This document shows positions 6,638 to 60,797 of a stretch of DNA of 64,000 nt, piece after piece. A program made the position numbers and the translations under genes. The DNA is from Oceanimonas smirnovii ATCC BAA-899 (lineage in GTDB: Bacteria > Pseudomonadota > Gammaproteobacteria > Enterobacterales > Aeromonadaceae): NCBI RefSeq assembly GCF_000381965.1, contig NZ_KB908454.1, positions 62,001 through 126,000 of the forward strand. The letters are read 5' to 3'. The notes beneath the pieces were generated by a model. It had not been told where the DNA came from. It did no database searches and saw only the letters and a list, made by a program, of their open reading frames with translations. Position 1 is the stretch's first letter; each line of letters begins with the position of its first letter.

Positions 6638-6740
6638 GGACCAAGGAATAACTTCACGACACGCTTCAAGCACTTCCCTGTGTCGCTCGGCAAATGCCAT
6701 CCATGGCATTTGATCGGTCGTGAAGCCATTTCCTTGGTCC
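6638..6740 (+). repeat. Structured palindromic intergenic element, copy A
   Basis: Outer arms GGACCAAGGAA (6638-6648) and TTCCTTGGTCC (6730-6740) pair perfectly; an inner stem CTTCACGAC (6652-6660) pairs with GTCGTGAAG (6717-6725). Inside are two hairpins, CAC/GTG (around 6671-6682) and CAAATGCCAT/ATGGCATTTG (6691-6712). The core shares ACGCTTCAAG and CGCTCGG with the other copies. It sits between the receptor gene and piuC, both on the plus strand. Confidence 0.85.
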
Positions 6741-6852
6741 TCCTTATCGACAAACAGAGCCGTCTGAAATGAGCCTCTGGATAACCCACATAAATTTAAG
6801 CCAAGCCCCTGCCGGGGCTTTATTTGTTTAGCAAGAAAGCGAGAATTTCATC

Positions 6853-7533
6853 ATGATGCTGCATATACCCGGCGTGCTCAGCGCCGAACAGGTGGCCGAA
6901 TGCCGCAAGCTTTTGCTGGCGGCCGACTGGATAGACGGCAATGCCACCGCCGGTTTTCAGTCGGCTCAGGCCAAAAACAACCTGCAACTGCCTGAAAACA
7001 GCGACACCGCTGCTGTGATTGGCAAAATGATCACAGAGGCGCTGGCCCGTCATCCGCTGTTTGTGGCGGCGGCGCTGCCGGAGAAAATCTTTCCGCCGCT
7101 GTTCAATTGCTATCAGGGCGGCCAGGCTTTCGGCATTCACGTAGACAATTCCATTCGTATGCACCCGGTTACGGGAGAGCGCATTCGTACCGATTTGTCG
7201 GCGACCTTGTTTTTCTGTGAACCGGAAGAATATGAAGGGGGCGAGCTGGTAGTGGAAGACACCTATGGCGCTCACAGCGTTAAACTACCGGCAGGAGATC
7301 TGATTCTGTATCCGTCTTCCAGCCTGCACAAGGTGCTGCCGGTGACGCAAGGGGCGCGTATCAGCTCGTTTTTCTGGATTCAGAGCATGGTGCGGGACGA
7401 TGGCCAGCGCAGTCTGTTGTTTGATCTGGACACCAGCATTCAGAACATTAACCAGCAGCTGGGAGCCGACAACGAGACCAGCATTCAGCTTACCGGTGTC
7501 TATCACAACCTGCTGCGCCGCTGGGCGCTTTGA
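6853..7533 (+). CDS. piuC: Fe(II)/2-oxoglutarate PKHD-type hydroxylase PiuC/YbiX
   Basis: A 226-aa cytoplasmic dioxygenase of the PKHD family. The iron-binding triad is visible as H96-x-D98 (IHVDNS) and H159 (SSLHKV), with R169 placed to bind 2-oxoglutarate. PiuC genes commonly lie beside Fiu/PiuA receptors and are Fur-regulated; the physiological substrate of the family is poorly known. The 247-base gap to the receptor gene holds repeat copy A, so co-transcription is likely but would be interrupted by a long hairpin. ATG codons at 6853 and 6856 are both possible starts; neither has a strong ribosome binding site. Confidence 0.9.
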
Positions 7534-7537
7534 GTGG

Positions 7538-7618
7538 GGAACAGGGAGCAGGAAAAGAAAAAGGGACCGGGAACCGCTTTTCACCAGTCCCCCAGTCCCT
7601 AATCCCGATTCCCTGATA
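7538..7618. repeat. G/C-run intergenic repeat (GGGATTAGGGAATGGGGA family), copy 1
   Basis: GGGAACAGGGAGCAGG on the left and CAGTCCCTAATCCCGATTCCC on the right of the short piuC-xanP gap. Related strings occur at 9783, 15914, 21661 and 39153. Confidence 0.5.
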
Positions 7619-7620
7619 GA

Positions 7621-9018
7621 TTACGCCTGCTGAGTTTCGGCGTCAGCGGCGTCGTCGGTCTCGGGCTTGCCCATCGGCATAATGATGTTCATTACAATGG
7701 CGGTAATGCCGCCGGCGGAGATGCCGGAAGCAAACACGTTCTTAATGATGTCGGGCATAAACTGCAGAATGTCCGGCTTCTGGGAAATACCCAGGCCCAT
7801 GCCAAAGGAAATGGCAATAATGAACAGGGCGCGGCGATCCAGTTTTTCACGGGACAGAATACGTACACCAGCGGCGGCAATAGAGCCGAACATTACCAGA
7901 GTGGCACCACCCAGTACCGGCTCGGGAATGCGCTGCACCAGGGTACTGATGGCCGGGAACAGGCCCATTACCACTAGAATGCCGGCTACATAAAAGCCCA
8001 CGTGGCGGCTGGCCACGCCGGTCATCTGAATCACGCCGTTATTCTGGCTGAAGGTGGATACCGGAAAGGTATTGAAGATGGAGGCCAGTGAGGAGTTAAC
8101 ACCATCACCCAGCACACAGCCCTTGAGACGGCTCATGTATACAGGGCCGGATACGGGTTCGCCGGAGACTTCCGACGTGGCGGTGGTATCGCCAATGGCT
8201 TCCAGTGAGGTGATCACATATACCAGCACCAGCGGAATAAACAGGGATGCATCAAAACCCAGACCATATTGCATGGGAATGGGGAGGGCAATGGTCGGCA
8301 GGCTGCCGGACAGCGGTGCCAGCTTGCCCATATACCAGGCCAGCAGGGTACCTGCGACCATGGCTACCAGAATGGAAGACAGCCGGATATAAGGATTACG
8401 GCTGCGATTCATCAGAATAATAATGCCGAGCACAGTACCTGCCAGAGCCAGATTTTCCAGCGAACCGAATTCACCGGCTTCCATGGCACCAAAGCCACCA
8501 CCGATTGAGGTAAGGCCCAGCTGGATCAGGGTCAGGCCGATCAGGGTCACGATAATGCCGCTGACCAGCGGGGAAATAATGCGCCGGGCCAGGTGCAGAA
8601 AACGGGAAATAATCATCTCGGTAGGTGCGGCCAGCAGCGCAGTACCAAAAATCGCCGCCAGCATGGCTTCGGTGGTCACGCCGCCGTCTTTCATGGCCAG
8701 ACCACTGGCAATGATAGGACCAAGAAAGTTAAAGCTGGTGCCCTGAATGGACAGCAAACCCGTGCCCACAGGACCAAACCGTTTCATCTGAATAAAGGAG
8801 GCAACACCGGTAATGAACAACGACATGCTGATGATATGGGCGGTGTCGGTAGCAGGAATGCCCAGCGCCTGGCAGATGATCAGTGGCGGAGTGATAACCG
8901 CCACGAACAAGGCCAGCAGGTGCTGAATGGCGGCGAACAGAGACTGCATAAACGGCGGCTTGTCGTGAAGCCGGTACACCAGATCACTCTGGTGCGAAGA
9001 TTGCTGCGTGTTGGACAT
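7621..9018 (-). CDS. xanP: Xanthine permease, NCS2 family
   Basis: A 465-aa inner-membrane nucleobase:proton symporter of the NAT/NCS2 family. It matches the XanP (YicE) pattern: LIYRL-like N-terminus ([10 protein letters not shown]), [27 protein letters not shown], the signature [15 protein letters not shown], and [14 protein letters not shown]. About 12-14 hydrophobic segments can be traced. XanP of E. coli is a high-affinity xanthine transporter; the NAT signature supports a purine base, xanthine by similarity. It stands alone, divergent from yacL and convergent with piuC. Confidence 0.92.
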
Positions 9019-9315
9019 ATTTTTTCCGGTATGTATCTACGGGTGTTGGTTTTGTTATGGTTATTTCTGGCCTGTGGTTGAAAACGCACTCGGCTGAAGG
9101 GCGCATAGGATACTGGATAAGCAGGCTGACGACCAGTAACCGGATGCAAAACGAGCATAAAATGTATGCATTTTTTGTTCGCTTTATCATCACCTGACCG
9201 AAAAGTTGGTTTACCGGGACAAAATTCGTCACTTTGCTTTTTTACTCGAATGCTACTTGTGAGCGAATGAACCACCTCGTTAAAATAGCGCTCTTTTGTG
9301 CCGGAAAGCTGCACC

Positions 9316-9675
9316 ATGGAATTTGAATTTTTACGTGATCTGGACGGCCGCTGCCGTGCCCGGTGCGAGATGGGCCATGAGGCCTTTGGGCAATGGCTGA
9401 CCGACGAGGTAACTGCGGCTGAAGCAGGATGGTTGCTGAATACCATCACTCGACTCGACGCTCAGCCCCAGGAGGAGTTTCGTAAGGTATATGCCGAATT
9501 CACGCTGGCACTGAGTGACGGCGAAGCTGAGCTGACCGGCCACGGTCTGGCTTTTGACAGCGAGGCGCTGGAAGAGGGCATGAGCTATTACGATGACGCC
9601 CACTACGCCGGCTGCGGCCTGGACGATCTCGCCCGCCTGCTAACCCAATGGCGGGAGTTCATTCAAGGCCGGTGA
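9316..9675 (+). CDS. yacL: UPF0231 family protein YacL
   Basis: A 119-aa protein of unknown function. The N-terminus MEFEFLRDLDGRCRARCEMGH and the segment LEEGMSYYDDAHYAGCGLDD line up well with E. coli YacL (MDYEFLRD..., EEGMNYYDEE). The ATG at 9316 is preferred over the GTG at 9298, giving the family length (E. coli 120 aa). YacL lies beside acnB in enterobacteria; here it is separated from acnB by 5 kb. The 297 bases between it and xanP contain no gene and no clear operator. Confidence 0.85.
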   Translation: MEFEFLRDLDGRCRARCEMGHEAFGQWLTDEVTAAEAGWLLNTITRLDAQPQEEFRKVYAEFTLALSDGEAELTGHGLAFDSEALEEGMSYYDDAHYAGCGLDDLARLLTQWREFIQGR

Positions 9676-9705
9676 GGAGTGAGGGGACGGAAGTGAGGAG
9701 TAGAC

Positions 9706-9779
9706 GCCGCTTCAGCTGGCGCAAGCAGGCGGCTCCTGCATTACAGGCCTGCTGCGCAGCCCCTGCCAGCTAAAGCGGC
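9706..9779. repeat. Palindromic intergenic element between yacL and arfB
   Basis: Left arm GCCGCTTCAGCTGGC (9706-9720) pairs with GCCAGCTAAAGCGGC (9765-9779). A second stem inside pairs GCGCAAGCAGGC (9719-9730) with GCCTGCTGCGC (9747-9757), and AGTAG/CTACT extends the outside. Unrelated in sequence to copies A-E. It lies between converging genes and could end both transcripts. Confidence 0.65.
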
Positions 9780-9782
9780 AGC

Positions 9783-9810
9783 TACTAATCCCCATTCCCT
9801 ATTCCCCGCT
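9783..9810. repeat. G/C-run intergenic repeat, copy 2
   Basis: ACTAATCCCCATTCCCTATT is the reverse complement type of the same short repeat seen at 21661 and 39153. Confidence 0.45.
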
Positions 9811-10226
9811 CACAGCTTTACTTTTCCTCGAGTGCTTTTGATCTTGCCCCTGTGGGTTTTGCTGTCGGTACGTCTGGCTTTGGCGGCCTTGCTGGGTTTG
9901 GTGGGGCGGCGTACTTTTACCGGTCTGCCGGCTTTCTGTAACAGGGCCACCAGCGCTTCTTTGGCGGCTTCCTTATTCATCAGCTGACTGCGCTCGCTTT
10001 CCACTCTGATCAGTATCAGGCCGCTTGGCAATATCCGGTGATCCTTCATTCTGGACAGGGCTTCTTTATAGATGCCGGGCAGGCTGGGGCTGTTGGCGTA
10101 ATCAAAGCGCAGCTGCACTGCAGAGTCGGTCTTGTTAACGTGCTGGCCGCCGGGGCCACCGGCCCGCATGGTAATAAACTCCAGTTCATTATCCGGGATG
10201 CTTACCCGGGCTGATATCTCCAGCAT
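9810..10226 (-). CDS. arfB: Alternative ribosome-rescue factor ArfB
   Basis: A 138-aa peptidyl-tRNA hydrolase that frees ribosomes stalled on mRNAs without a stop codon. The catalytic GGQ motif lies at residues 26-28 (RAGGPGGQHVNKTDS). The C-terminal tail is rich in Lys and Arg (KVRRPTKPSKAAKARR), the part known to enter the mRNA channel. The start at 10226 (MLEISARVSIPDNELEF) is chosen because AGAGGAAAGAGAG precedes it; the longer frame up to 10307 has no family match. It is divergent from glnK, and the NtrC site for glnK lies just upstream of its start. Confidence 0.93.
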   Translation of the reverse strand: MLEISARVSIPDNELEFITMRAGGPGGQHVNKTDSAVQLRFDYANSPSLPGIYKEALSRMKDHRILPSGLILIRVESERSQLMNKEAAKEALVALLQKAGRPVKVRRPTKPSKAAKARRTDSKTHRGKIKSTRGKVKL

Positions 10227-10239
10227 TCTCTCTTTCCTC

Positions 10240-10255
10240 TGCACCGTTTTGGTGC
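10240..10255 (+). promoter_or_regulatory. NtrC binding site
   Basis: TGCACCGTTTTGGTGC is a perfect match to the NtrC pattern TGCACC-n4-GGTGCA core. It is centred about 115 bp upstream of the sigma-54 promoter, the usual enhancer distance. GCACC and TTGTGCC half-sites around 10273-10291 could form a second, weaker site. Confidence 0.75.
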
Positions 10256-10348
10256 TGATTGCTTTGCTATTGCACCAGCATAACATTGTGCCTTTGCGAA
10301 CATCCATGCTGATTATTGTAAGTATTTGAATTTAAATAAATAAAAAGC

Positions 10349-10364
10349 TGGCATAAAGCTTGTA
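10349..10364 (+). promoter_or_regulatory. Sigma-54 promoter of glnK-amtB
   Basis: TGGCATAAAGCTTGTA fits the -24/-12 pattern TGGCAYRnnnnTTGCW with correct spacing. The start of glnK lies 41 bases downstream. With the NtrC site this indicates induction under nitrogen limitation. Confidence 0.8.
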
Positions 10365-10386
10365 AGTATCATCCTGACTCTTTTAA

Positions 10387-10743
<357 letters not shown>

Positions 10744-10754
10744 GGGGATTTGTC

Positions 10755-11981
10755 ATGGATGCATTAACCGAAGTGAAGTTTGCCCTCGATACTTTTTACT
10801 TTCTGATGTCGGGTGTGCTGGTGATGTGGATGGCAGCGGGGTTTGCCATGCTGGAAGCCGGTCTGGTACGGGCCAAAAACACCACCGAAATACTGACCAA
10901 AAACATACTGCTGTTTGCCATTGCCTGCACCATGTATCTGCTGGTGGGCTATTACATCATGTATGTCAATAACGCTGAAGGCGGTGTCATGCCAAGCTTA
11001 GGCGGCCTGATTGGCAATGTGGCTGAAGGCGCGGATCATGCCCTTGAGTCTGATTTTTTCTTTCAGGTGGTATTTGTCGCAACCGCCATGTCCATTGTTT
11101 CCGGTGCCGTGGCCGAGCGCATGAAATTATGGGCCTTTCTTGCCTTCAGCGTCGTTATGACCGGCTTTATCTATCCGGTAGAAGGCTACTGGACCTGGGG
11201 CGGCGGTTTTCTTTCAGAGTGGGGGTTCACTGACTTCGCCGGCAGCGGTATTGTGCACCTGGCCGGTGCGGCCGCCGCTCTGGCAGGTGTGCTGCTGCTG
11301 GGTGCACGTAAAGGCAAATATGGCAAGCATGGCGAAGTGCACCCCATTCCCGGCTCCAACATGCCGCTGGCGACCCTGGGGACTTTTATCTTATGGATGG
11401 GCTGGTTTGGTTTTAACGGTGGATCTCAGCTGCTGGTGTCTGATGTCGAGAACGCCACCGCCGTAGCCAAAATCTTTGTGAACACCAACGCCGCTGCCGC
11501 TACCGGTGCCATTGGTGCGCTGCTGGTCACCAAGCTGACCTGGGGCAAGGCCGATCTTACCATGATCCTCAACGGTGCCCTGGCGGGCCTGGTTGCAATT
11601 ACCGCCGATCCCTTATCGCCCGGACACTTGTGGGCAGCCTGCATCGGTTTGCTGGCCGGCGTGCTGGTGGTGTATGCCATTGTCGGGCTGGACCGGTTGC
11701 GTATTGACGACCCCGTGGGTGCCATATCTGTTCATGGTGTATGCGGTATGCTGGGCCTGATGCTGGTGCCGGTGGCCAATGGTGAGGCCAGTTTCCTTGT
11801 TCAGCTGGCAGGCATACTGGTGATTGGCGGCTGGTCTTTTGTAATGAGTTTGCTGGTCTGGTTCGGGCTCAAGCGCACCATGGGCATTCGTGTTGGAGAG
11901 GAAGAAGAGCTGTCGGGCATGGATCAAATTGACTGTGGCATTGATGCCTATCCTGAGTTTGTGACGCTCAAGCCCCGTTAA
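10755..11981 (+). CDS. amtB: Ammonium transporter AmtB
   Basis: A 408-aa inner-membrane ammonium channel that works as a trimer blocked by GlnK. Amt features are visible: FWLMAAGFAMLEAGLVRAKN-like N-terminus (VMWMAAGFAMLEAGLVRAKN), FQVVFVATAMSIVSGAVAERM, the GIVHLAGA and ISVHGVCG segments carrying the pore histidines, and about 11 hydrophobic helices. There is no obvious cleavable signal peptide. The C-terminal tail (GEEEELSGMDQIDCGIDAYPEF) matches the conserved part that couples to GlnK. Confidence 0.96.
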   Translation: MDALTEVKFALDTFYFLMSGVLVMWMAAGFAMLEAGLVRAKNTTEILTKNILLFAIACTMYLLVGYYIMYVNNAEGGVMPSLGGLIGNVAEGADHALESDFFFQVVFVATAMSIVSGAVAERMKLWAFLAFSVVMTGFIYPVEGYWTWGGGFLSEWGFTDFAGSGIVHLAGAAAALAGVLLLGARKGKYGKHGEVHPIPGSNMPLATLGTFILWMGWFGFNGGSQLLVSDVENATAVAKIFVNTNAAAATGAIGALLVTKLTWGKADLTMILNGALAGLVAITADPLSPGHLWAACIGLLAGVLVVYAIVGLDRLRIDDPVGAISVHGVCGMLGLMLVPVANGEASFLVQLAGILVIGGWSFVMSLLVWFGLKRTMGIRVGEEEELSGMDQIDCGIDAYPEFVTLKPR

Positions 11982-12016
11982 TGCCTTTACGTCACGAGGC
12001 AGTTTGTCTTGTTTTT

Positions 12017-12040
12017 GAGGAGCTTCGGCTCCTCTTTTTT
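12017..12040 (+). terminator. Rho-independent terminator of glnK-amtB
   Basis: GAGGAGC-TTCG-GCTCCTC hairpin followed by six T. Confidence 0.92.
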
Positions 12041-12102
12041 GATCCGCTGCAAAAGATCGTATTGCAGATGAAAATTTTTCTTATTTCAATACGCTTTGGT
12101 AG

Positions 12103-12151
12103 TTGATTCCCGTTATGCTCTCTGTATACTTCTAAACGTTAATTATTCTCA
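12103..12151 (+). promoter_or_regulatory. Promoter and Fur box of the Fe3+ transporter operon
   Basis: TTGATT (12103-12108) and TATACT (12125-12130) are spaced by 16 bp. CGTTAATTATTCTCA (12137-12151) is the reverse complement of TGAGAATAATTAACG, a good match to the Fur core, placed over the likely transcription start where binding would repress. Confidence 0.65.
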
Positions 12152-12172
12152 GTCAACCAAATGGAACTGTGT

Positions 12173-13186
12173 ATGACCAAAAAGTTTGTTCTCTCTGCCG
12201 CCGCTTTACTGGCATCCAGCTTTACTGCTCAGGCCTTTGCTGAAGAAGTGAACGTTTACTCCAACCGTCAGGAATTCCTGATCAAGCCCATTCTGGACAC
12301 CTTTACCGAGGAAACCGGTATTGATGTGAATGTGGTGTTTATGAAAGATGGCCTGGGTGAGCGACTGGAGCGGGAAGGACGACTGTCTCCGGCAGATCTG
12401 GTACTGACGGTGGATGTCAGCCGCCTGATGGAAGTAGTGAATGCCGATCTTACACAGCCGGTACAAAGCGATGTGCTGGAAGAGAGTATTCCGGCCCAGT
12501 ATCGTGATGCCGGTGGCAGCTGGTATGCCCTTACTACGCGTGCCCGCGCCATTTACAGTTCGGTTGACCGGGTAGGCAAGCGTGATGACATCACCTACGA
12601 AGAGCTGGCGGATCCCAAGTATAAAGGGAAAATCTGTACCCGCAGCGGCAAGCATCCCTACAATGTGGCGCTGACTGCCTCCATGATTGCCGAGCACGGT
12701 ACCGAATACACCAAAAACTGGCTGCAGGGCCTGAAAGACAACCTGGCACGCAAGCCTCAGGGTGGTGACCGCGATCAGATCAAGGCCATTCATGATGGTG
12801 TGTGCGATTATGCCCTGGGCAACAGCTATTACTATGGCGTCATGCTGACCAACGACGATCAGCGTGAGGCAGCCGAGTCCGTTTATATCAACTTCCCCAA
12901 TCAGGATGGTCGCGGCACGCATGTGAACATCTCTGCGGTAGCCATGGCCAAGCATGCCAAGAACAAGGACGCCGCTCTTAAATTGATGGAATTCCTGGCC
13001 GGTGATGAAGCCCAGCACCTGTATGCTTCTGCCAACCATGAATATCCGGTTAAGCCGGGTGTGGAACCGTCCGAGCTGGTAAAAGGCTGGGGTGACTTCA
13101 AATCCGATACTCTGCCGCTGGCCGATGTGGCCAAACATGCCAAAGACGCGATCAAGCTGGTAGACGAAGTGAAATACGATCTGTAA
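12173..13186 (+). CDS. fbpA: Fe3+ ABC transporter, periplasmic substrate-binding protein
   Basis: A ferric-iron binding protein of the FbpA/AfuA/FutA family. The ATG at 12173 (MTKKFVLSAAALLASS) starts a clear signal peptide cleaved after AQAFA; an ATG four codons earlier is less suited. The mature protein opens EEVNVYSNRQEFLIKPILDTF, typical of the family, and contains the tyrosine pair NSYYYG near residue 225 that coordinates iron in homologues. Followed by the permease and ATPase genes in the order binding protein, permease, ATPase. Confidence 0.9.
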   Translation: MTKKFVLSAAALLASSFTAQAFAEEVNVYSNRQEFLIKPILDTFTEETGIDVNVVFMKDGLGERLEREGRLSPADLVLTVDVSRLMEVVNADLTQPVQSDVLEESIPAQYRDAGGSWYALTTRARAIYSSVDRVGKRDDITYEELADPKYKGKICTRSGKHPYNVALTASMIAEHGTEYTKNWLQGLKDNLARKPQGGDRDQIKAIHDGVCDYALGNSYYYGVMLTNDDQREAAESVYINFPNQDGRGTHVNISAVAMAKHAKNKDAALKLMEFLAGDEAQHLYASANHEYPVKPGVEPSELVKGWGDFKSDTLPLADVAKHAKDAIKLVDEVKYDL

Positions 13187-13222
13187 AAAGACGGGGGTAG
13201 ATTCCCCCGCTTTGAGTAGTAA

Positions 13223-31041: not shown

Positions 31042-31163
31042 AAGCGAAGAATCAGCAGGGTTACCTGCGCCGACACGCTGCGAGTACATCCATGTAGCGC
31101 TCGGCAAATGCCATCCCTGGCATTTGACGGTCGGCTCCGGCAATCCCTGCTGCTTCTTCGCTT
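31042..31163 (+). repeat. Structured palindromic intergenic element, copy B
   Basis: Outer arms 31042-31065 and 31139-31163 pair over about 22 bp (AAGCGAAGAA with TTCTTCGCTT, then CAGCAGGGTT with AATCCCTGCTG). The core begins CGACACGC and ends GGTCG. Inner hairpins are TACAT-CC-ATGTA (31085-31096) and CAAATGCCA/TGGCATTTG (31105-31126). Confidence 0.88.
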
Positions 31164-31216
31164 CACGCCGGTGTCGCCTTATAAATGTCGTCAGGCAACT
31201 CGGCATTTTCCCGAAG

Positions 31217-31318
31217 AGCAAAGGGTGTCTGCTTCGCCGTACCCTCTGCGCCATGGATGGCGCAGCGGAGCCCCCATGGAGGGGTTTACGGCGTGTCGGC
31301 GAAGTAGTGCCCTTTGCT
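31217..31318 (-). repeat. Structured palindromic intergenic element, copy B2 (diverged)
   Basis: Outer arms AGCAAAGGG...CTTCGCCG (31217-31239) and CGGCGAAG...CCCTTTGCT (31297-31318). The core is in the opposite orientation to copy B. The hairpin that reads CAAATG...CATTTG elsewhere is CTGCGCCATGGATGGCGCAG here (31246-31265), changed on both sides yet still paired. The other hairpin is CCCCCATGGAGGGG. Confidence 0.8.
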
Positions 31319-33731: not shown

Positions 33732-33805
33732 CTTCACGACCGATCAAATGCCATGGATGGCATTTGCCGAGCGTTACATGGAGGTACTTGAAGCGTGTCG
33801 TGAAG
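33732..33805 (-). repeat. Structured palindromic intergenic element, copy C
   Basis: CTTCACGAC (33732-33740) pairs with GTCGTGAAG (33797-33805). Read on the minus strand it contains ACGCTTCAAG, the TAC/GTA hairpin, CGCTCGG and the CAAATGCCAT/ATGGCATTTG hairpin. Closest to copy A. Outer pairing beyond these arms is weak. It fills the 180-base gap between the hydrolase gene and mmsB. Confidence 0.85.
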
Positions 33806-43217: not shown

Positions 43218-43316
43218 GCAAAGGGAACTGCAGAGCCGACCGTCAAATGTCAGGGATGACATTTGCCGAGCGTCCCATGGATGGGCTTGAAGCGTGTCGG
43301 CGGCGCAGTCCCTTTG
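43218..43316 (-). repeat. Structured palindromic intergenic element, copy D
   Basis: Outer arms GCAAAGGGAACTGC (43218-43231) and GCAGTCCCTTTG (43305-43316) pair with one bulge; CCGAC (43236-43240) pairs with GTCGG (43296-43300). Inner hairpins are CAAATGTCA/TGACATTTG (43244-43265) and CCCAT/ATGGG (43274-43285). Core identical to copy E over most of its length. Confidence 0.88.
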
Positions 43317-52761: not shown

Positions 52762-53256
52762 ATGAGCACAGACACACTGGCACAGCAATTGGGTGAAGCG
52801 CTGCAGGCAAAAGGCATTATGATGACCACTGCCGAGTCCTGCACCGGCGGTGGCATTGCCGCCGCCATCACAGACATTGCCGGCAGCTCGGCCTGGTTTG
52901 ACCGGGGCTTTGTGACTTATTCCAATGCCGCCAAGCACGAGATGCTGGGGGTGGATATGGCGCTGATAGAGCGCCACGGCGCAGTCAGCCGGGAAGTGGC
53001 CGAAGCCATGGTACGCGGTGCCTGTGCCGCCTCTGGCTGTGGCTTTGGTGTGGCGGTGACCGGTGTGGCCGGCCCCGGTGGCGGCAGCCCGGAAAAACCC
53101 GTGGGCACAGTGTGGCTGGCTTGTTACTCTGTGGCACAAAATAAGCTTGATTGCCGGCTGCTGCAGCTGGACGGCAACCGGGCCGCAGTGCGCCGGCAAA
53201 CCGTGGTCAATGCGCTTGAGGCCTGCCTGACCCTGCTTGAGCAAAACCCGACTTGA
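52762..53256 (+). CDS. pncC: Nicotinamide-nucleotide amidohydrolase PncC (CinA C-terminal type)
   Basis: A ~164-aa enzyme that deamidates NMN to NaMN for NAD recycling. TTAESCTGGGIAAAITDIAGSSAWFDRGFVTYSNAAK and GVAGPGGGSPEKPVGTVWLA are the full CinA-C signature. The ATG at 52762 has AAGGTGAG just upstream; the ATG at 52750 (MKVS) is the alternative. It is the stand-alone form, without the N-terminal CinA domain. It adjoins recA as in many gammaproteobacteria. Confidence 0.94.
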   Translation: MSTDTLAQQLGEALQAKGIMMTTAESCTGGGIAAAITDIAGSSAWFDRGFVTYSNAAKHEMLGVDMALIERHGAVSREVAEAMVRGACAASGCGFGVAVTGVAGPGGGSPEKPVGTVWLACYSVAQNKLDCRLLQLDGNRAAVRRQTVVNALEACLTLLEQNPT

Positions 53257-53280
53257 TACTGTACGAATAACCAGTATACT
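53253..53280 (+). promoter_or_regulatory. recA promoter with LexA (SOS) box
   Basis: TACTGTACGAATAACCAGTA (53257-53276) matches the SOS consensus TACTGTATATATATACAGTA with both CTG/CAG ends. It overlaps a promoter TTGATA (53253-53258) and TATACT (53275-53280), 16 bp apart. The -35 overlaps the pncC stop codon. Confidence 0.9.
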
Positions 53281-53330
53281 CAGCGTTAATTACTACAATT
53301 CAGCACCAGCCAATTTCAGTGGAGCATGTT

Positions 53331-54401
53331 ATGGATCAGAACAAAGAAAAAGCCTTGGCCGCCGCCCTGGGCCAGATTGAAAAGCAATTTGGCAAAGGCT
53401 CTATCATGCGTTTGGGCGACAATAAGGCGCTGAATGTTGAAGCCATTTCTACCGGCTCCCTGTCTCTGGACATTGCTCTTGGCATTGGTGGTCTGCCTAC
53501 CGGTCGTATTGTAGAAATCTATGGTCCCGAGTCTTCCGGTAAAACCACCCTCACTCTGCAGGTGATCGCTCAGGCCCAGCGCGCCGGCAAGGTGTGTGCT
53601 TTTGTGGATGCCGAACACGCACTGGATCCGGTGTATGCCGGTAAACTCGGCGTCAACGTAGACGATCTGCTGGTATCCCAGCCCGACACCGGTGAACAGG
53701 CGCTGGAAATCTGTGACATGCTGGTGCGTTCCGGCGCGGTAGATGTCATCATTGTTGACTCTGTGGCTGCACTGACGCCCCGCGCCGAAATTGAAGGCGA
53801 GATGGGTGACTCTCATGTGGGTCTGCAGGCTCGTCTGATGTCTCAGGCGCTGCGTAAGCTCACCGGTAATATCAAGAGCGCCAACTGTCTGTGCATCTTC
53901 ATCAACCAGATCCGTATGAAGATTGGTGTCATGTTCGGCAGCCCCGAAACCACCACAGGCGGTAACGCCCTTAAGTTCTACTCTTCCGTGCGTCTCGACA
54001 TTCGCCGTATCGGCTCTATCAAGGAAGGCGATGAAGTGGTGGGTAACGAAACCCGGGTGAAAGTGGTCAAGAACAAGGTAGCGCCGCCGTTCAAGCAGGC
54101 TGAGTTCCAGATCATGTATGGTGCCGGTATCTCCAAGGAAGGTGAGCTGATTGAGCTGGGCGTGAAGCATAAGCTGATTGAAAAAGCCGGTGCCTGGTAC
54201 AGCTACAAGGGTGACAAAATTGGTCAGGGCAAGGCCAACTCCATTAAATATCTGCTGGAGCACACCAATATTGCCGAAGAAATTGAGCAGCAGCTGCGTG
54301 AAATGTTGCTGCTGGCACCGGGCTCTGCCAAGGAAGAAGGTAACGGCAAGGGTGAAGCCCTGCCGGAACTGGACGGCCCTGACGATAACGCCGAATTCTG
54401 A
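53331..54401 (+). CDS. recA: Recombinase RecA
   Basis: A 356-aa recombinase and LexA coprotease. ATG at 53331 follows GGAG at 6 bases. Walker A GPESSGKT at residues 66-73, Walker [11 protein letters not shown], and loop 2 [19 protein letters not shown] are present. The acidic C-terminal tail ([11 protein letters not shown]) is normal. Confidence 0.99.
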
Positions 54402-54404
54402 TAA

Positions 54405-54430
54405 CAAGGCCGGGCAATGCCCGGCCTTTG
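54405..54430 (+). terminator. Hairpin between recA and recX
   Basis: CAAGGCCGGGC (54405-54415) pairs with GCCCGGCCTTTG (54419-54430). It lacks a long T-run and so resembles the partial recA-recX terminator that keeps recX expression low. Confidence 0.75.
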
Positions 54431-54445
54431 TGTTAAGAGACAGGC

Positions 54446-54910
54446 ATGTTATTTGAATCATCCAATCCGGATCAGCCCGTGTGGGACTGTGCCCTGCGAA
54501 TTCTGTCCCGGCGGGATCACAGCCGGCGGGAACTGGAGCAAAAGCTGCGCCAACGCGAGTTTGAGCAGGAGGCCATTACCCGCACCCTGAACAAGCTGGA
54601 GCAACAGCAATGGCTGCAGGACGCGCGCTTTGCCGAAGTGCAGGTGCGTCAGCACATCTACAAAAAGCATGGTCCTCAGCGTATTCGTGCCGAGCTGCAG
54701 CGCAAAGGCGTTCATCCCGACGAGATTGCCACAGCGCTTGAACAAGAAGAAACCGACTGGTTTGAGCTGGCCCGGGAGTGTCATTTCGCCCGTTTTGGTG
54801 ATGCCCCCATTCCCGATTTCAAAGAGCGGGCCCGGCGCATGCGTTATCTGCAGGCGAGGGGGTTTGGCCCGGATCACATTCGTTATGCCCTTGAAGCCGG
54901 CGACCAATAA
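54446..54910 (+). CDS. recX: Regulatory protein RecX
   Basis: A 154-aa inhibitor of RecA filament extension. The three-helix repeats show ALRILSRRDHSRRELEQKLRQREF, WLQDARFAEVQVRQHIYKKHGPQRIRAELQRKGV and RARRMRYLQARGFGPDHIRYAL. Located 44 bases behind recA with an attenuating hairpin in between. Confidence 0.94.
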   Translation: MLFESSNPDQPVWDCALRILSRRDHSRRELEQKLRQREFEQEAITRTLNKLEQQQWLQDARFAEVQVRQHIYKKHGPQRIRAELQRKGVHPDEIATALEQEETDWFELARECHFARFGDAPIPDFKERARRMRYLQARGFGPDHIRYALEAGDQ

Positions 54911-55012
54911 CGCTTTTTCGCACCCACGCGCGCCATGACGCGTTTTACATTGCTGCCCATTCCTTTTAAATTATGGGAGTAATTGCCTACCAAGCTATCA
55001 ACAGGATTTTCC

Positions 55013-57640
55013 ATGCGAATGACCACGTCTGAGTTACGCAACGCGTTTCTCGAATATTTCCGCCAGCAAGGACACCAGGTGGTGGCGTCCAGCTCGCTGG
55101 TACCCCACAACGACCCGACCCTGCTGTTTACCAATGCCGGCATGAACCAGTTCAAGGACTTGTTCCTGGGTCTGGAGCAGCGGGCCTACAACAGAGCGGT
55201 CAGCTCCCAGCGTTGCGTGCGTGCCGGCGGCAAGCACAACGATCTGGAAAACGTGGGTTACACCGCCCGTCACCACACTTTCTTTGAAATGCTGGGTAAC
55301 TTCAGCTTTGGTGACTACTTCAAACAGGACGCCATTCGCTTTGCCTGGGAATTCCTGACCGACGTGGTCAAGCTGCCCAAGGAAAAACTCTGGGTCACAG
55401 TGTATGAGACCGACGACGAAGCCTTTGGTATCTGGTCTCAGGAAATTGGTGTGCCGGTGGATCGCATTGTGCGCATCGGTGACAACAAAGGTGCCAAATA
55501 CGCGTCCGACAACTTCTGGACCATGGGTGACACCGGCCCCTGCGGCCCCTGCACCGAGATCTTCTACGATCACGGCGAGCATATCTGGGGTGGCCCTCCC
55601 GGCAGCCCGGAAGAAGACGGTGACCGCTATATCGAAATCTGGAACCTGGTGTTCATGCAGTTCAACCGTCATGCCGACGGCACCATGGAGCCGCTGCCCA
55701 AGCCGTCGGTCGACACCGGCATGGGGCTGGAGCGTATCGCCACCATTTTGCAGGGCGTGCACTCCAACTATGAAATCGATCTGTTTCAGGCGCTGATCAA
55801 GGCAGCGGCCGAGGCGGTGGGCACCACTGATCTCGACAACAAGTCGCTGCGGGTGATTGCCGACCATATTCGTTCCTGCTCCTTCCTGATTGCCGATGGC
55901 GTCATGCCCTCCAACGAAGGCCGGGGCTATGTGCTGCGCCGTATTATTCGCCGTGCCGTGCGCCACGGCCGCAAGCTGGGTGCCGACAAGACCTTCTTCC
56001 ATACTCTGGTGGGTTCCCTGTGCGAGCAGATGAGCGATGCCTATCCCGAGCTGAACAGTCAGCGGCCGATCATCGAGAAGGTGCTGCGGCTGGAGGAAGA
56101 GCAGTTTGCCCGTACTCTCGACCGTGGCCTGCAGCTGCTGGAAGACGCCATTAATGATTTGGGTGAAAGCACAGTGCTGCCCGGCGAGGTGGTGTTCAAG
56201 CTGTACGATACCTATGGTTTCCCGGCGGATCTTACTGCCGACGTGCTGCGCGATCGTGAGCTCAGCATTGATGAGGCCGGCTTTGAAGCCCTGATGCAGC
56301 AACAGCGCACCCGGGCCAAGGAAGCGTCCAACTTTGGTGTGGACTATACCAAGGCCATCAAGGTTGACGGTGAAACTGCCTTTACCGGCTACGAGCACCT
56401 GGCTCAGGCGGCCAGGGTGACCGCGCTGTTCAAGGGCAGTGAGCCGGTGAATGCCCTGATTGCCGGTGAAGAAGGCGCGGTAGTACTTGATACTACCCCC
56501 TTCTACGCCGAGTCGGGTGGTCAGGTGGGTGATGCGGGCGTGATCCGCATGGACGACGGCCTGTTTGTGGTGAAAGACACGCAAAAGGCGGGTAACGGCA
56601 TTTTGCACCTGGGCCATCTGGAGCTGGGCACCCTGGAAACGGGTGAGTCCGTCTCTGCGGCCGTTGACGGTGCCCGCCGTCAGGCCACGGCACTGAACCA
56701 TTCCGTGACTCACCTGCTGCATGCCAGCCTGCGCAAGCTGCTGGGCGAGCATGTTACCCAGAAAGGCTCGCTGGTCGAGCCCGAGCGGCTGCGTTTTGAC
56801 TTCTCTCACCTGGAAGCCATGAATGCCCAGGAACTGCGGGAAGTGGAAGACATGGTTAACCGCGACATTCGTGCCAACCTGCCGGTGGCCACTCAGCTGA
56901 TGGATCTGGAAGGGGCCAAACAGGCCGGTGCCATGGCGCTGTTCGGCGAGAAATATGACGAAAGCGAAGTGCGGGTCGTATCCATGGGCGAGGTATCTAC
57001 CGAGCTCTGTGGTGGTACTCACGTCAGCCGGACCGGTGATATCGGTCTGTTCAAAATTCTCTCGGAAAGCGGCATTGCCGCCGGTGTGCGCCGCATTGAG
57101 GCCGTCACCGGTGAAGCGGCCCTGGCCTATCTGCATCAGCTTGATCACGAAATTGCCCAGGCTGCCAGCCTGGTCAAGGGTGATACCTTCTCGGTATCGG
57201 CCAAGGTGCGTCAGGTGCTGGAGCGCAGCCGTCAGCTGGAAAAGGAAATTGAGCAGCTCAAGGGCAAGCTGGCGGCACAGGCCGGCGCGTCCTTGCTGGA
57301 TCAGGTGGTTGAGATCAACGGCAACAAGGTGCTGATCGCCAATCTGGAAGGGGTAGATGCCAAATCACTGCGCGGCACCCTGGACGATCTCAAGTCCAAG
57401 CTGCAGTCCGGTGTGGTGGTGCTGGGCACTGTTACCGGTGACAAGGTCAGCCTGATTGCAGGCGTCACCAAGGATCTCACCGGCAAGGTGAAAGCCGGCG
57501 AGCTGGTCAACATGGTGGCCCAGCAGGTGGGCGGCAAGGGTGGCGGCCGTCCCGATATGGCCCAGGCTGGTGGCAGTGAGCCGGAAGCCCTGCCGGCGGC
57601 GCTGGAGTCTGTGTCCGGCTGGCTGGGCGAGCGCCTCTGA
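55013..57640 (+). CDS. alaS: Alanine--tRNA ligase
   Basis: An 875-aa class II synthetase. [47 protein letters not shown] opens the catalytic domain (given here as the known family start); the editing domain zinc ligands are [10 protein letters not shown] and [13 protein letters not shown], followed by the C-Ala domain ([17 protein letters not shown]). ATG at 55013 has AGGA 7 bases before it; upstream codons to 54983 are not needed. Confidence 0.97.
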
Positions 57641-57713
57641 TTGCAGCTGAAACGGCCTGTTATTACCTAACAGCGTCTATAATTTGAGTCGGCAGCCGTA
57701 CGCCGAACAGTAA

Positions 57714-57746
57714 AAGAGGCCTGTCTTTGACAGGCCTCTTGATTTT
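57714..57746 (+). terminator. Rho-independent terminator of alaS
   Basis: AAGAGGCCTGTC-TTT-GACAGGCCTCTT stem (57714-57740) followed by GATTTT. Confidence 0.8.
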
Positions 57747-57856
57747 GACGATGTTTTACCCCATTTCATGCCACAGGAAGGCTGGGTTTTTCGTCGCCTT
57801 TATCGGATAATAAACAACATTTTTTACTAACAGATAGCCAAAACAGGAGCAGCCAT

Positions 57857-58048
57857 ATGCTAATTTTGACCCGTCGGGTAGGTGAAACCCTGATGATCGG
57901 TGACGAAGTCACTGTCACCGTGCTGGGTGTTAAGGGTAACCAGGTGCGCATTGGTGTAAATGCACCCAAAGAAGTGTCTGTACACCGCGAAGAAATCTAC
58001 ATGCGGATACAGGCAGAAAAGGGTACCGGCGACGACAGCCAGTATTAA
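57857..58048 (+). CDS. csrA: Carbon storage regulator CsrA
   Basis: A 63-aa RNA-binding dimer that controls translation by binding GGA motifs. [22 protein letters not shown] and [19 protein letters not shown] contain the RNA-contacting R6-R8 and R44 regions. AGGAG precedes the ATG. Follows alaS as in E. coli. Confidence 0.98.
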
Positions 58049-58145
58049 TTTTCAGTTTTACGGGGTGTTTTTCATTCTTTTTGATGGCTTTTGCGCCCAA
58101 ATGGTTAAAGTCTGTTCGAACGAAAAAATCGGGTTGGAAAAGTGT

Positions 58146-58173
58146 TTGACTTATTTTGGCCCGGCGGTAATAT
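58146..58173 (+). promoter_or_regulatory. tRNA operon promoter
   Basis: TTGACT (58146-58151) and TAATAT (58168-58173), 16 bp apart, followed by the GC-rich discriminator ACGCCCCGC that usually marks stringently controlled stable-RNA promoters. Confidence 0.75.
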
Positions 58174-58188
58174 ACGCCCCGCAAACAC

Positions 58189-58281
58189 GGTGAGGTGGCC
58201 GAGAGGCTGAAGGCGCTCCCCTGCTAAGGGAGTATGCGGCTTATACCCGCATCGAGGGTTCGAATCCCTCCTTCACCGCCA
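58189..58281 (+). tRNA. serX: tRNA-Ser (GCT)
   Basis: 93-nt class II tRNA. Acceptor GGTGAGG pairs with CTTCACC, discriminator G and encoded CCA. Anticodon GCT at 58223-58225 in the loop of CTCCC/GGGAG. The long variable arm is TATGCGGCTTATACCCGCAT. Reads AGC/AGU serine codons. Confidence 0.97.
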
Positions 58282-58292
58282 TTTTTTGTAGT

Positions 58293-58369
58293 GCATCCGT
58301 AGCTCAGCTGGATAGAGTACTCGGCTACGAACCGAGCGGTCGGAGGTTCGAATCCTCCCGGATGCGCCA
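58293..58369 (+). tRNA. tRNA-Arg (ACG), copy 1
   Basis: 77-nt tRNA with acceptor GCATCCG/CGGATGC, anticodon ACG and encoded GCCA end. The ACG anticodon is expected to be edited to ICG by TadA to read CGU, CGC and CGA. Confidence 0.97.
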
Positions 58370-58394
58370 TTGTTTAAAAGCGTTTTTCAGAAAA

Positions 58395-58471
58395 GCATCC
58401 GTAGCTCAGCTGGATAGAGTACTCGGCTACGAACCGAGCGGTCGGAGGTTCGAATCCTCCCGGATGCGCCA
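58395..58471 (+). tRNA. tRNA-Arg (ACG), copy 2
   Basis: Identical over its 77 nt to copy 1; the spacer is 25 bases and unrelated. Confidence 0.97.
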
Positions 58472-58496
58472 TCTGAAAATAAACGCGACCTGTTAT

Positions 58497-58573
58497 GCAT
58501 CCGTAGCTCAGCTGGATAGAGTACTCGGCTACGAACCGAGCGGTCGGAGGTTCGAATCCTCCCGGATGCGCCA
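58497..58573 (+). tRNA. tRNA-Arg (ACG), copy 3
   Basis: Identical to copies 1 and 2; last tRNA before the operon terminator. Confidence 0.97.
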
Positions 58574-58577
58574 TATT

Positions 58578-58610
58578 AAAAAGCCGGCCTTGTGCCGGCT
58601 TTTTGCTTTT
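58578..58610 (+). terminator. Rho-independent terminator of the tRNA operon
   Basis: AAAAAGCCGGC-CTTGT-GCCGGCTTTTT stem followed by GCTTTTTT. Confidence 0.9.
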
Positions 58611-58738
58611 TTAAAAGCGCCGGTTTTTTTCTGCCTGTTTGTTCATTCATCCTTAATAACTGAGCAGCCGTGGCTTTTATTCCGCAGCGCTTTGCCTTAC
58701 GCTGCAACGCCCGGGTATCAGCGACGACAGGGAAGGTT

Positions 58739-59566
58739 ATGTCTGTTTACCGGAGAAATCCACTCCCCTCACAAGACAGTGAACAAGCTGACAATGATAT
58801 GGATCTGAGTCTGCTGCCACCGTTCTGTTATCTGAGCGGTGCGTTTCATAGCCTGCTGGCAGGGATAAAAAAAGTCTTTCTGAGCTATCCCCGGTCGGCT
58901 CTGACCGTACTGGGATTGAGTTATCTGCTGGGACTGCTGGCCGCCAATATACCCAGCCTGGGCTGGCCTTCCGGTACCGCTTTTCTGATCGGCTTTGCCC
59001 CGGTGTTCCTGCCTCTGGCGGCGATATTCTTATATCTTTGCATCAGTATCACTCTGCTGGCACTTTTTGCTGCTAACCACGCAACTCGCCTGCTGTTTGC
59101 TGCCGGGCTGCTGCAGATTGTAATTCTGCCGGACCTGATACTGAGTCTGGACGATACCCGCCCGCTGATGGCGCTGGGGCAGCACGGCAGCTTTATTCTG
59201 ATTCTGTTACAGATGGCTTTGGTATCATTTATCGGCTGGAATTACCGGCATTGGTTGATCCGCCACGGCGTATGGTGCGCGCCTGTGCTGATAGCTCTGA
59301 CCCTGTTGTCTGAGTTTGAAGGTCATTACGGTTTTGCGGTCAGCGATATTGAGATCCGCTACAGCGACATAAAACAGTGTGACTTTATCAGCGGGCAGGC
59401 GTCAGGTTACGATCGGCATTACAGCTACCGGCGCTGCGAAGTAGCCCTGTATACTCCGGCGCGTACCTATCGTTTCAGCAACCTTCCTGTACCCTATGCT
59501 GACACTATGACTCTGCAGATACGCCACGGCATCTTTGACCATTACCAGCTGTTACCGGCCCCTTAG
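58739..59566 (+). CDS. Membrane protein of unknown function
   Basis: I do not recognise this 275-aa protein. The start at 58739 (MSVYRRNPLPSQDSEQ) is taken because AGGGAAGG lies just upstream; the frame is open 23 codons earlier. After a polar ~50-residue N-terminus there are about five hydrophobic segments (SALTVLGLSYLLGLLAANI; FLIGFAPVFLPLAAIFLYLC; TLLALFAANHATRLLFAAGLL; FILILLQMALVSFIGW; CAPVLIALTLL). A polar C-terminal domain of ~80 residues follows (FEGHYGFAVSDIEIRYSDIKQCDF...YRRCEVALYTPARTYRF) with two cysteines, possibly disulfide-bonded if periplasmic. It stands alone between the tRNA genes and oxyR. Confidence 0.65.
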   Translation: MSVYRRNPLPSQDSEQADNDMDLSLLPPFCYLSGAFHSLLAGIKKVFLSYPRSALTVLGLSYLLGLLAANIPSLGWPSGTAFLIGFAPVFLPLAAIFLYLCISITLLALFAANHATRLLFAAGLLQIVILPDLILSLDDTRPLMALGQHGSFILILLQMALVSFIGWNYRHWLIRHGVWCAPVLIALTLLSEFEGHYGFAVSDIEIRYSDIKQCDFISGQASGYDRHYSYRRCEVALYTPARTYRFSNLPVPYADTMTLQIRHGIFDHYQLLPAP

Positions 59567-59714
59567 GCCGGCACCGAAGTCAGCGAGGCGTTAACCGTTA
59601 TCTAATCCTGACGGGCATGTTCAAACGCTTCCTGCAGAAGACGATGGAATACTCTGCTTCTGATCAGCTGGTTTGATAAAAAACATTGCTATATGGTGCC
59701 TCTCTTCGCCTTTG

Positions 59715-60608
59715 TTACAGCAGCTCGCTCAGCAAACGGCTGATCACCCGGGCCATTTCATTAAAGCAGGGGCGGCGCACTGAGTGCGACCGGTGCAGCA
59801 GAGTAATGGTCCGGCTGGGGCAGGGGTTGGTGACGCTGAGATAGCGCACGCCGCTGTCTTCTTTGTGTTCAGTCACGGCCAGTTTGGGAATAAGCGTAAG
59901 GCCTGAGCCGGCCGCCACCATATTGCGCAGGGTTTCCAGGCTGGTGCCCTTGAAGTGGCTGTCTTCGCCTATACCGGCGGCAAAACAGAAACCCATGGCC
60001 TGATCCCGCAAGCAATGGCCGTCTTCCAGCATCAGTAATTTCTCGCCCTTAAGCTCCTCAAGACCAATCTCAGTTCGCTCGGCCCACTTGTCGCCTGCGG
60101 GCAAGGCAAGCAACATGGGCTCGTCGTAGAGCGGTATGGAGCCGAAATTATCCATATCATCCAGTTGGGCCAGAATAAGGCAGTCGAGATCGCCGTCGGC
60201 CAGTTGCTTTAGCAGCACCTGGGTCTGGGCTTCGTATAAGAAGATTTGCAGCTCAGGAAAGTGTTGCCTCAGAGCGGGAATAATATGGGGCAGTAAATAA
60301 GGCCCTACGGTAGGAATCAGGCCAATGTGCAGCTCACCGGACATGGGCTCGGTAAAGGTGCGGGCAATATCACGCAGCTCCTTGGTAGCGGCCAGCACCC
60401 GGCGAGCCTGAGCGGTAATGGCGTCACCTGCCGGGGTAAACAACACCTTGCGGGAAGTGCGTTCCATCAGCAGTACACCCAGCTCATCTTCCAGCTTGCG
60501 CAGCTGGCCGCTGAGGGTGGGCTGGCTGACAAAACATTTTTCTGCCGCCTTACGAAAGTGGCGCTCTTCTGCGAGCGCCACCAGATATTCAAGATCCCGT
60601 AAATTCAC
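59715..60608 (-). CDS. oxyR: Hydrogen peroxide-inducible LysR regulator OxyR
   Basis: A 297-aa peroxide sensor and activator. N-terminal helix-turn-helix (FRKAAEKCFVSQPTLSGQLRKLEDELG). The redox cysteines fall exactly at C199 and C208 (DGHCLRDQAMGFC), as in E. coli OxyR. It lies downstream of the peroxiredoxin gene on the same strand, with repeat copy E between them. Confidence 0.97.
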   Translation of the reverse strand: MNLRDLEYLVALAEERHFRKAAEKCFVSQPTLSGQLRKLEDELGVLLMERTSRKVLFTPAGDAITAQARRVLAATKELRDIARTFTEPMSGELHIGLIPTVGPYLLPHIIPALRQHFPELQIFLYEAQTQVLLKQLADGDLDCLILAQLDDMDNFGSIPLYDEPMLLALPAGDKWAERTEIGLEELKGEKLLMLEDGHCLRDQAMGFCFAAGIGEDSHFKGTSLETLRNMVAAGSGLTLIPKLAVTEHKEDSGVRYLSVTNPCPSRTITLLHRSHSVRRPCFNEMARVISRLLSELL

Positions 60609-60683
60609 CTGTTCACCATGGTTATCAACTCCGTTATGAGCATGATCCCCGATTCTGGTGAGAATGAAAAGATATGACAGAAC

Positions 60684-60797
60684 GAAGCAACAACAGGGTT
60701 ACCTCCACCGACACGCTTCAAGCCCATCCATGGGACGCTCGGCAAATGTCATCCCTGACATTTGACGGTCGGTTCCGGTAATCCCTGTCATTGCTTC
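60684..60797 (+). repeat. Structured palindromic intergenic element, copy E
   Basis: Outer arms 60684-60703 (GAAGCAACAACAGGGTTACC) and 60777-60797 (GGTAATCCCTGTCATTGC then TTC) pair with few mismatches. Inner hairpins are CCCAT-CC-ATGGG (60723-60734) and CAAATGTCA/TGACATTTG (60743-60764). It almost fills the 215-base gap between the peroxiredoxin gene and oxyR. Confidence 0.88.

What the first reader, a model, noticed from the sequence alone, without database searches (positions are those of the whole stretch)
6638..60797. A family of six intergenic palindromes whose stems covary
Copies at 6638-6740, 31042-31163, 31217-31318, 33732-33805, 43218-43316 and 60684-60797 share a core (CGACACGC...CGCTCGG...GGTCG) that folds as an outer stem with two inner hairpins, a three-way junction. 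Hairpin 1 is CCCAT/ATGGG, TACAT/ATGTA, CAC/GTG, TAC/GTA or CCCC/GGGG in different copies; the outer arms also differ but pair in nearly all copies. Paired changes on both sides are what selection on RNA or DNA structure, or a structure-dependent mobilisation, would leave. It is ERIC-like in concept, but I do not recognise the sequence as a named family.
Basis: partly seen in the sequence, partly recalled or inferred. Interest (0 to 1): 0.8.

Follow-up and report, generated by a model that had tools for sequence, protein, structure and literature searches.

The report
Dispersed repeats shaped like CsrA decoys
The six folded repeats belong to a widespread bacterial repeat whose RNA form would show two hairpin loops that look like the docking site of the global regulator protein CsrA, so a scattered repeat of unknown use may be a decoy or dock for that regulator.

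Summary
In detail: six intergenic copies fold far better than shuffles (z -4.8 to -8.9) and their stems covary. The genome (Oceanimonas-like, Aeromonadaceae) has about 70 such units, none placed in a predicted gene. All 23 searched genomes of the genus have matches, and related structures occur in 69 of 369 gammaproteobacterial genomes. In this genome the outer arms fall into three main subtypes rather than varying copy by copy; in four of six distant genomes every copy's two arms fit each other best. They are the only such pairs in the 64-kb window, and csrA lies in the window. In distant genomes the arm mismatches are G-U on that strand (18 distinct events to 1), and that strand folds better as RNA (74/87, 74/77, 27/35). 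Best reading: a MITE-like repeat kept as an RNA that docks a CsrA dimer. CsrA binding, transcription and the mobiliser are not shown, and there is no gene-strand bias. No Rfam, ERIC or attC match.

The parts
6638..6740 (-). copy 1, subtype B; the strand given is the GGA strand. Hexaloop hairpins at 6696-6707 and 6671-6682
31042..31163 (-). copy 2, subtype A (GGA strand -), one half of a composite unit with copy 3. Hexaloop hairpins at 31110-31121 and 31085-31096
31164..31216 (.). spacer of the composite unit; the A-spacer-C stretch recurs in the genus
31217..31318 (+). copy 3, subtype C (GGA strand +), other half of the composite. Hexaloop hairpins at 31250-31261 and 31273-31284
33732..33805 (+). 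copy 4, subtype B (GGA strand +); absent in the 7 other genomes in which both flanks were found. Hexaloop hairpins at 33750-33761 and 33775-33786
43218..43316 (+). copy 5, A core with C-like arms by eye (GGA strand +). Hexaloop hairpins at 43249-43260 and 43274-43285
60684..60797 (-). copy 6, subtype A (GGA strand -), between an oxyR-like gene and a glutaredoxin-domain gene. Hexaloop hairpins at 60748-60759 and 60723-60734
57857..58048 (+). csrA, gene of the proposed binding protein; alanyl-tRNA synthetase gene upstream, tRNA genes downstream
   Evidence: (PF02599, E 6.9e-26)

Best explanation
The copies belong to a dispersed, MITE-like intergenic repeat that is kept under selection as an RNA. 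Read from the complementary (GGA) strand, a long outer stem ends in a three-way junction carrying two hairpins. Each has an ANGGAN hexaloop closed by C-G, the hairpin that CsrA/RsmA grips, and the two start 22-25 nt apart, inside the distance that one CsrA dimer bridges. Proposed mechanism: wherever a copy is transcribed on that strand, the RNA docks one CsrA dimer across its two loops, so many copies together act as a distributed CsrA decoy (or as local CsrA docks), while the stems are free to change as long as they pair. Shown here: structure, covariation, loop identity and spacing, dispersal, occupied and empty sites, strand asymmetry in distant genomes. Inferred: transcription, CsrA binding, any effect on CsrA activity. 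Unknown: what moves the copies.
For: Both hairpins of all six window copies are ANGGAN loops with 3-bp closing stems. Of 16 such hairpins in the window 12 lie in the six copies, and all 6 pairs that start 18-35 nt apart are the six copies; 20 block-shuffled windows gave 1 pair in total. Two such hairpins on the GGA strand in 68 of 87 own copies, 66 of 77 in relatives, 24 of 35 distant ones; on the other strand any such hairpin in 3, 2 and 0. Published: ANGGAN loop from NMR, SELEX consensus RUACARGGAUGU with a six-base loop, dimer bridging over 10-63 nt with an optimum over 18 (PMC7652899, section 4 read). The full SELEX consensus is in 6 of 35 distant copies and 0 of 164 others. csrA is in the window. 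In 35 distant copies the TCC complement of GGA in both loops and the C-G closing pairs are invariant, while stems vary at 97.4% pairing. Arm mismatches of 40 distant copies: A-C 24, G-T 1 on the model strand, that is G-U on the GGA strand (distinct events 18 to 1, p 8e-5); 35 distant copies, 6 of them shared with the 40, give 29 to 7 (p 3e-4). The GGA strand folds better as RNA in 74/87, 74/77 and 27/35; flank control 29/67.
Against: No bias for the GGA strand to match the neighbouring genes: own genome 15 GGA against 12 (single co-directional units); distant copies 9 against 19, the other way (p 0.087). Within model columns the mismatch counts depend on which columns count: all columns give G-T 49 and A-C 24 (own), 38 and 41 (relatives), 19 and 14 (distant); without the two loop-closing pairs, and for the own set without one further column, they are 27 and 24, 14 and 41, 6 and 13 (p 0.78, 0.0004, 0.17). 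So the own genome shows no asymmetry. Hairpin 2 has a long stem, while most SELEX hairpins had four or fewer pairs. The distant copies were found with a model that includes the loops, so their loop conservation is partly selected for; the six window copies are free of that bias. Strand-specific deamination could also give the asymmetry. Other conserved unpaired bases (ACGC, CGCTCG) are not explained. Some copies have lost or enlarged a loop. Promoter-like sites near the copies are no more than chance (6 found, 5.1 expected; 0). No expression or binding data.
Confidence: 0.55

Rival explanations
1. A non-autonomous DNA element recognised as folded single-stranded DNA by a recombinase in trans, as REPINs are by RAYTs; the loops are its recognition bases.
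For: Dispersal, presence and absence at orthologous sites, both orientations at one site. No gene-strand bias. Weak association with Y1_Tnp across the class, 52 of 69 against 164 of 300 (p 0.0017, not corrected for kinship).
Against: None of 30 Y1 loci of the genus (of 32 Y1 matches; about 1.5 kb on each side where the contig allows) holds a model match. 5 of 23 genus genomes have no Y1 match yet carry 4-60 copies; 9 of 29 genomes with 8 or more matches have none. The mismatch asymmetry in distant genomes points to G-U tolerance on one strand. It does not predict ANGGAN loops.
Confidence: 0.2
2. A 3'-end element: the stem terminates or protects transcripts from either side, and the loops are incidental.
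For: All 70 own units lie outside predicted genes; convergent gene pairs are over-represented (31, expected 14) and divergent ones under-represented (5, expected 16). Long stable stems.
Against: The convergent excess is not seen in five stretches of the window and four relatives (2 of 42 convergent and 3 of 47 divergent regions occupied). It explains neither the invariant loops nor their fixed spacing. A simple terminator scan finds one weak match inside the copies (in copy 2, - strand), but that scan cannot see a stem with a branched tip.
Confidence: 0.15
3. Neutral palindromes whose arms are kept complementary by template-switch copying between the arms, with no function.
For: In genome G298 six copies have 144 of 144 Watson-Crick pairs at arm positions 1-24, while arms of different copies are almost unrelated beyond position 6 (identity 0.32-0.45) and cores 93% identical, with no one-sided change. 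Template switching can write such double changes in one step (PMC8794818, abstract seen).
Against: It does not explain why the unpaired core is the most conserved part (mean entropy 0.57 against 1.10 for paired columns) or the loop identity. It may still be how the arms change.
Confidence: 0.1

Closest known systems
CsrB/CsrC and RsmX/Y/Z sponge RNAs
   Same: GGA in hairpin loops, several sites per RNA, spaced so that a CsrA/RsmA dimer can bridge two (RsmX/Y names recalled)
   Different: Those are single genes with many sites; this is a repeat with two sites per copy, dispersed over the genome and the class. No match to their Rfam models among the matches listed. CsrA binding not tested.
ERIC/RU elements and other bacterial MITEs
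   Same: Imperfect palindrome of about 100-130 bp, intergenic, tens of copies, no evident coding capacity
   Different: The E. coli ERIC copy tested gives no match to the model at E 10. No target duplication could be established here.
REP/BIME/REPIN with RAYT transposases
   Same: Dispersed extragenic palindromes, often in head-to-head composites
   Different: Larger, with a three-way junction; no Y1 transposase locus examined holds a copy.
Coxiella QMITEs that give rise to small RNAs
   Same: A MITE as source of small RNAs (passages of the review PMC10969869 seen)
   Different: CsrA does not occur in that review; sequences not compared.
CsrR1 and CsrR2, CsrA-related small RNAs of Alcanivorax
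   Same: Predicted CsrA sponges with several GGA motifs (passages of PMC9788540 seen)
   Different: Described as single loci, not repeats; sequences not compared.

Membership tests
CsrA/RsmA binding RNA | ANGGAN hexaloop in a hairpin | tested here: met
   12 of 12 hairpins in the six copies; criterion
CsrA/RsmA binding RNA | two sites 10-63 nt apart, optimum over 18 | tested here: met
   starts 22-25 nt apart in all copies that have both: 68 of 87, 66 of 77, 24 of 35
CsrA/RsmA binding RNA | transcribed and bound by CsrA | not testable with these tools
   no expression or binding data
CsrB/CsrC/RsmZ Rfam families | match to the family covariance model | tested here: not met
   none at gathering score in the window or 20 distant loci, none to these families at looser thresholds in 5 own and 5 distant loci
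ERIC | homology to ERIC | tested here: not met
   one E. coli ERIC copy, L425, no match to R2; the composite has no match in E. coli genomes
REPIN/RAYT | copies flank a Y1 transposase gene | tested here: not met
   0 of 30 Y1 loci
integron attC | RYYYAAC and GTTRRRY boxes in the stem (recalled) | tested here: not met
   0 of 87 own copies
integron attC | association with an integron integrase | tested here: not met
   33 of 69 against 113 of 300, p 0.13; best match in 30 IntI loci E 0.13. That set left out the G052 integrase, which does stand beside an array
bacterial MITE | dispersed, non-coding, inverted-repeat ends | tested here: met
   70 units, subtype arms that pair
bacterial MITE | target-site duplication and a related autonomous element | tested here: inconclusive
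   empty sites exist but flanks are too diverged to define junctions; no partner found

The most novel reading that the evidence does not exclude
A class-wide family of mobile repeats that act as protein-sponge elements: each insertion adds one two-site CsrA dock to the transcriptome, so copy number tunes CsrA activity genome-wide, and copies joined head to head supply a dock whichever strand is read. The stems diversify copy by copy, perhaps through template switching, while the docking loops stay fixed.
Probability: 0.35. Interest if true: 0.92.

Novelty: new variant of a known kind. Interest (0 to 1): 0.76.

Why it matters
CsrA is a global regulator whose best-known antagonists are a few dedicated small RNAs. 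If dozens of dispersed repeats per genome carry a two-site CsrA dock, the CsrA titration budget of many gammaproteobacteria has been miscounted, and a repeat that looks selfish would have a testable function. The copy-specific, fully paired arms of some genomes are also a natural record of how compensatory changes arise.

Tried and rejected
First guess of a Geobacter-type genome and its multicopy sequences: wrong organism. RAYT/Y1 partner: no copy beside any Y1 gene examined. Integron attC: suggested by one array beside an integron integrase in genome G052, but the likely cassette genes of that integron lie on the other side of the integrase (open frames read by eye), attC boxes are absent and there is no association. 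Plasmids, phages and E. coli with the composite: no match. Recurrent neighbour gene around own copies: three clusters of 3-5 proteins that look like common multi-gene families by eye.

I first read the near-equal G-T and A-C counts as a sign of DNA structure and later as wrong for the distant sets, where A-C mismatches are G-U on the other strand. The own-genome alignment shows no asymmetry.

That the arms are copied from the target site was not supported: at four sites where G105 lacks the copy present in G245, neither arm is seen in the empty site (by eye), though those flanks are diverged. My covariation null imitates R-scape but is not R-scape. In the distant alignment two of the five measures do not beat all shuffles (26 and 52 of 500 reach the observed value), and in the own alignment two are reached by 12 and 4 of 500.

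Rows dropped: hit 86 of the 87 (numbered from 0; weak, overlapping another on the other strand) from the context count. L369 from the arm counts (frame shifted by one), kept. From: L325, L334 and L339 (same copies as L298, L305 and L300), L304 and L307, second copies in a locus, and the 20 loci. From the strand counts: the two loop-closing pairs and, in the own alignment, one further column with 17 G-T.

Literature searches that listed no description of this repeat: (held library only).
Full report
WHAT IS THERE. The six copies are present at the stated coordinates, align over a common core and fold far better than dinucleotide shuffles. The genome is from an Oceanimonas-like genus of Aeromonadaceae: the 3-hydroxyisobutyrate dehydrogenase of the window is 79-83% identical to proteins of three named Oceanimonas records.

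COPIES. A covariance model of 17 subtype-A copies (R1) finds 89 matches at E<=0.1 in the 3.28-Mb genome, with at most 150 candidates scored. Re-scored in fetched loci at E<=0.001 there are 87; with one weak overlapping hit left out they form 70 units. All 23 genomes of the genus in the search have matches at E<=0.01, from 2 to 72, 72 being the scoring cap; of 38 relatives outside the genus 12 have at least one. A second model built from 77 copies of relatives (R2) matches 69 of 369 gammaproteobacterial genomes, 62 of 272 genera, at E<=1e-5, with at most 11 candidates scored per genome. No Rfam family reaches its gathering score on the copies of the window or of 20 distant loci.

SUBTYPES. In this genome the arms outside the core belong to subtypes A, B, C and a rare D. 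A and C face each other across a spacer as one composite of about 280 bp in 16 of 70 units; the composite recurs in the genus. In the model alignments insertions longer than 10 nt occur only in the two hairpin tips: 8 cases in 87 rows and 5 in 77.

COVARIATION. In 87 own copies 90.7% of pair cells are standard pairs and 312 cells have changes on both sides (shuffled mean 87). In 77 copies of relatives it is 93.5% and 346 (shuffled 95), in 35 distant copies 97.4% and 277 (shuffled 78). With partners slid by 1-3 columns pairing falls to 27-43%. These alignments were fitted to the model's structure, which favours it. A null that keeps the tree leaves 6 of 27 pairs significant against all column pairs in each of the first two sets, and 1 of 3889 non-pairs in each.

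ARMS IN OTHER GENOMES. In six distant genomes the arms are long and largely copy-specific. The right arm of a copy is the best partner of its own left arm in 9 of 9 (G245), 5 of 5 (G105), 5 of 5 (G367), 7 of 7 (G298), 7 of 9 (G332) and 3 of 6 (G346) copies; permutation p is 0.0084 or less in each. In G298, 144 of 144 arm positions pair although the arms of different copies are almost unrelated beyond position 6 and the cores are 93% identical. Pooled over the six genomes, comparisons between copies show 967 two-sided changes and 194 one-sided ones.

CONTEXT AND MOBILITY. None of the 70 own units overlaps a gene predicted by my own codon-based caller by more than 30 bases; 34 lie between co-directional, 31 between convergent and 5 between divergent genes. 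In the window and syntenic stretches of four relatives, 442 kb in all, 0 of 25 matches lie in predicted genes, but the convergent excess is not seen there. Of 44 distant copies 11 overlap an open frame of 90 aa or more by a crude caller; these may be chance frames, and I did not follow them up. The mmsA-acdH site could be read in 18 of 23 genus genomes: 10 hold a copy and 8 do not, and of the 10 four have the A copy in the direction of the genes and six against it. The copy at 33732 is missing in the 7 other genomes in which both flanks were found. The pair G016 and G001, with near-identical flanks, looks like a deletion between arms rather than a clean empty site. No target duplication was established.

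THE LOOPS. Bases that do not pair inside the core are the most conserved: mean entropy 0.57 against 1.10 for paired columns in the distant set, with TCC in both loops in 35 of 35. On the complementary strand these loops read ANGGAN closed by C-G. All six window copies have two, starting 23-25 nt apart. In the whole window 12 of 16 such hairpins and 6 of 6 such pairs are in the copies; 20 shuffled windows gave one pair. The CsrA review PMC7652899 (section 4 read, passages of others seen) gives the ANGGAN hexaloop from NMR, the SELEX consensus RUACARGGAUGU, and dimer bridging over 10-63 nt with an optimum above 18. csrA itself lies in the window at 57857-58048.

WHICH STRAND. If selection sees RNA, G-U should be the tolerated mismatch on that RNA. 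In the arms of 40 distant copies the model strand shows A-C 24 and G-T 1, which is G-U 24 and A-C 1 on the GGA strand; counted once per genome, position and mismatch it is 18 to 1. The 35 distant copies, 6 of them among the 40, give 29 to 7. Within model columns the answer depends on the columns kept: all columns give G-T 49 and A-C 24 for the own genome, 38 and 41 for relatives, 19 and 14 for the distant set; without loop-closing pairs and one further own-genome column 27 and 24, 14 and 41, 6 and 13. So the signal is clear in the distant arms, present in relatives and absent in the own genome. Folded as RNA the GGA strand is the more stable in 74 of 87, 74 of 77 and 27 of 35 copies (one tie); flanking control 29 of 67.

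WHAT SPEAKS AGAINST. Copies do not prefer to put the GGA strand in the transcript of their neighbours. The distant copies were collected with a model that knows the loops. Strand-specific deamination could mimic the mismatch bias. Other conserved unpaired bases are unexplained. Promoter-like sites around the copies are at chance level. No partner enzyme was found: Y1 transposases and integron integrases were tested; the first are weakly associated across the class but never beside a copy in the loci examined, the second not associated.

CONCLUSION. The repeat works most likely as an RNA with two CsrA-type hairpins at bridging distance, spread as a MITE-like element. It meets the sequence features of a CsrA target that were tested; by model match it is not a member of a known sponge-RNA family, and it failed the tests made for ERIC, REPIN and attC. 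The literature searches made here list no description of it; the library held is not complete.

Noticed in passing
L089 1249-2091, L279-L282 (genome G052): Copies stand in direct tandem arrays whose period differs from locus to locus (253, 168, 226, 205, 239 bp); one array ends beside an integron integrase gene.
   Followed up: partly
L288 4469-4991 (genome G030): A gene pair that looks like a RelB/RelE-type antitoxin and toxin (by eye, no family search) lies between subtype-C-like copies in one intergenic region.
   Followed up: no
L160 5057-5225, L105, L110, L163, L184: Hairpin 1 or 2 of some copies carries a further nested palindrome of about 60-100 bp that recurs in subtypes A and C and in several species (by eye).
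   Followed up: partly
L316 1517-1614, L322, L344, L327, L341, L023: Recurrent sub-threshold Rfam matches to Ysr224 (RF02770), best E 0.0013 with 30 bits against a cut-off of 70, on both strands; possibly long-hairpin noise.
   Followed up: no
G000:C2:83891-84829: The genome has an integron integrase gene (TIGR02249, E 1.9e-122); 17 of 23 genus genomes match at E 1e-30, some only in part.
   Followed up: partly
L031 336-1881: The only Y1 transposase match of the genome stands beside a divergent 364-aa gene that looks like tnpB (IS200/IS605 type, by eye).
   Followed up: partly
L104, L106, L109, L112; L207-L218: Other palindromic or simple repeats (such as AGCTTCCAGC and GGGACTGGGG) fill the same kinds of intergenic region in related genomes.
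   Followed up: no
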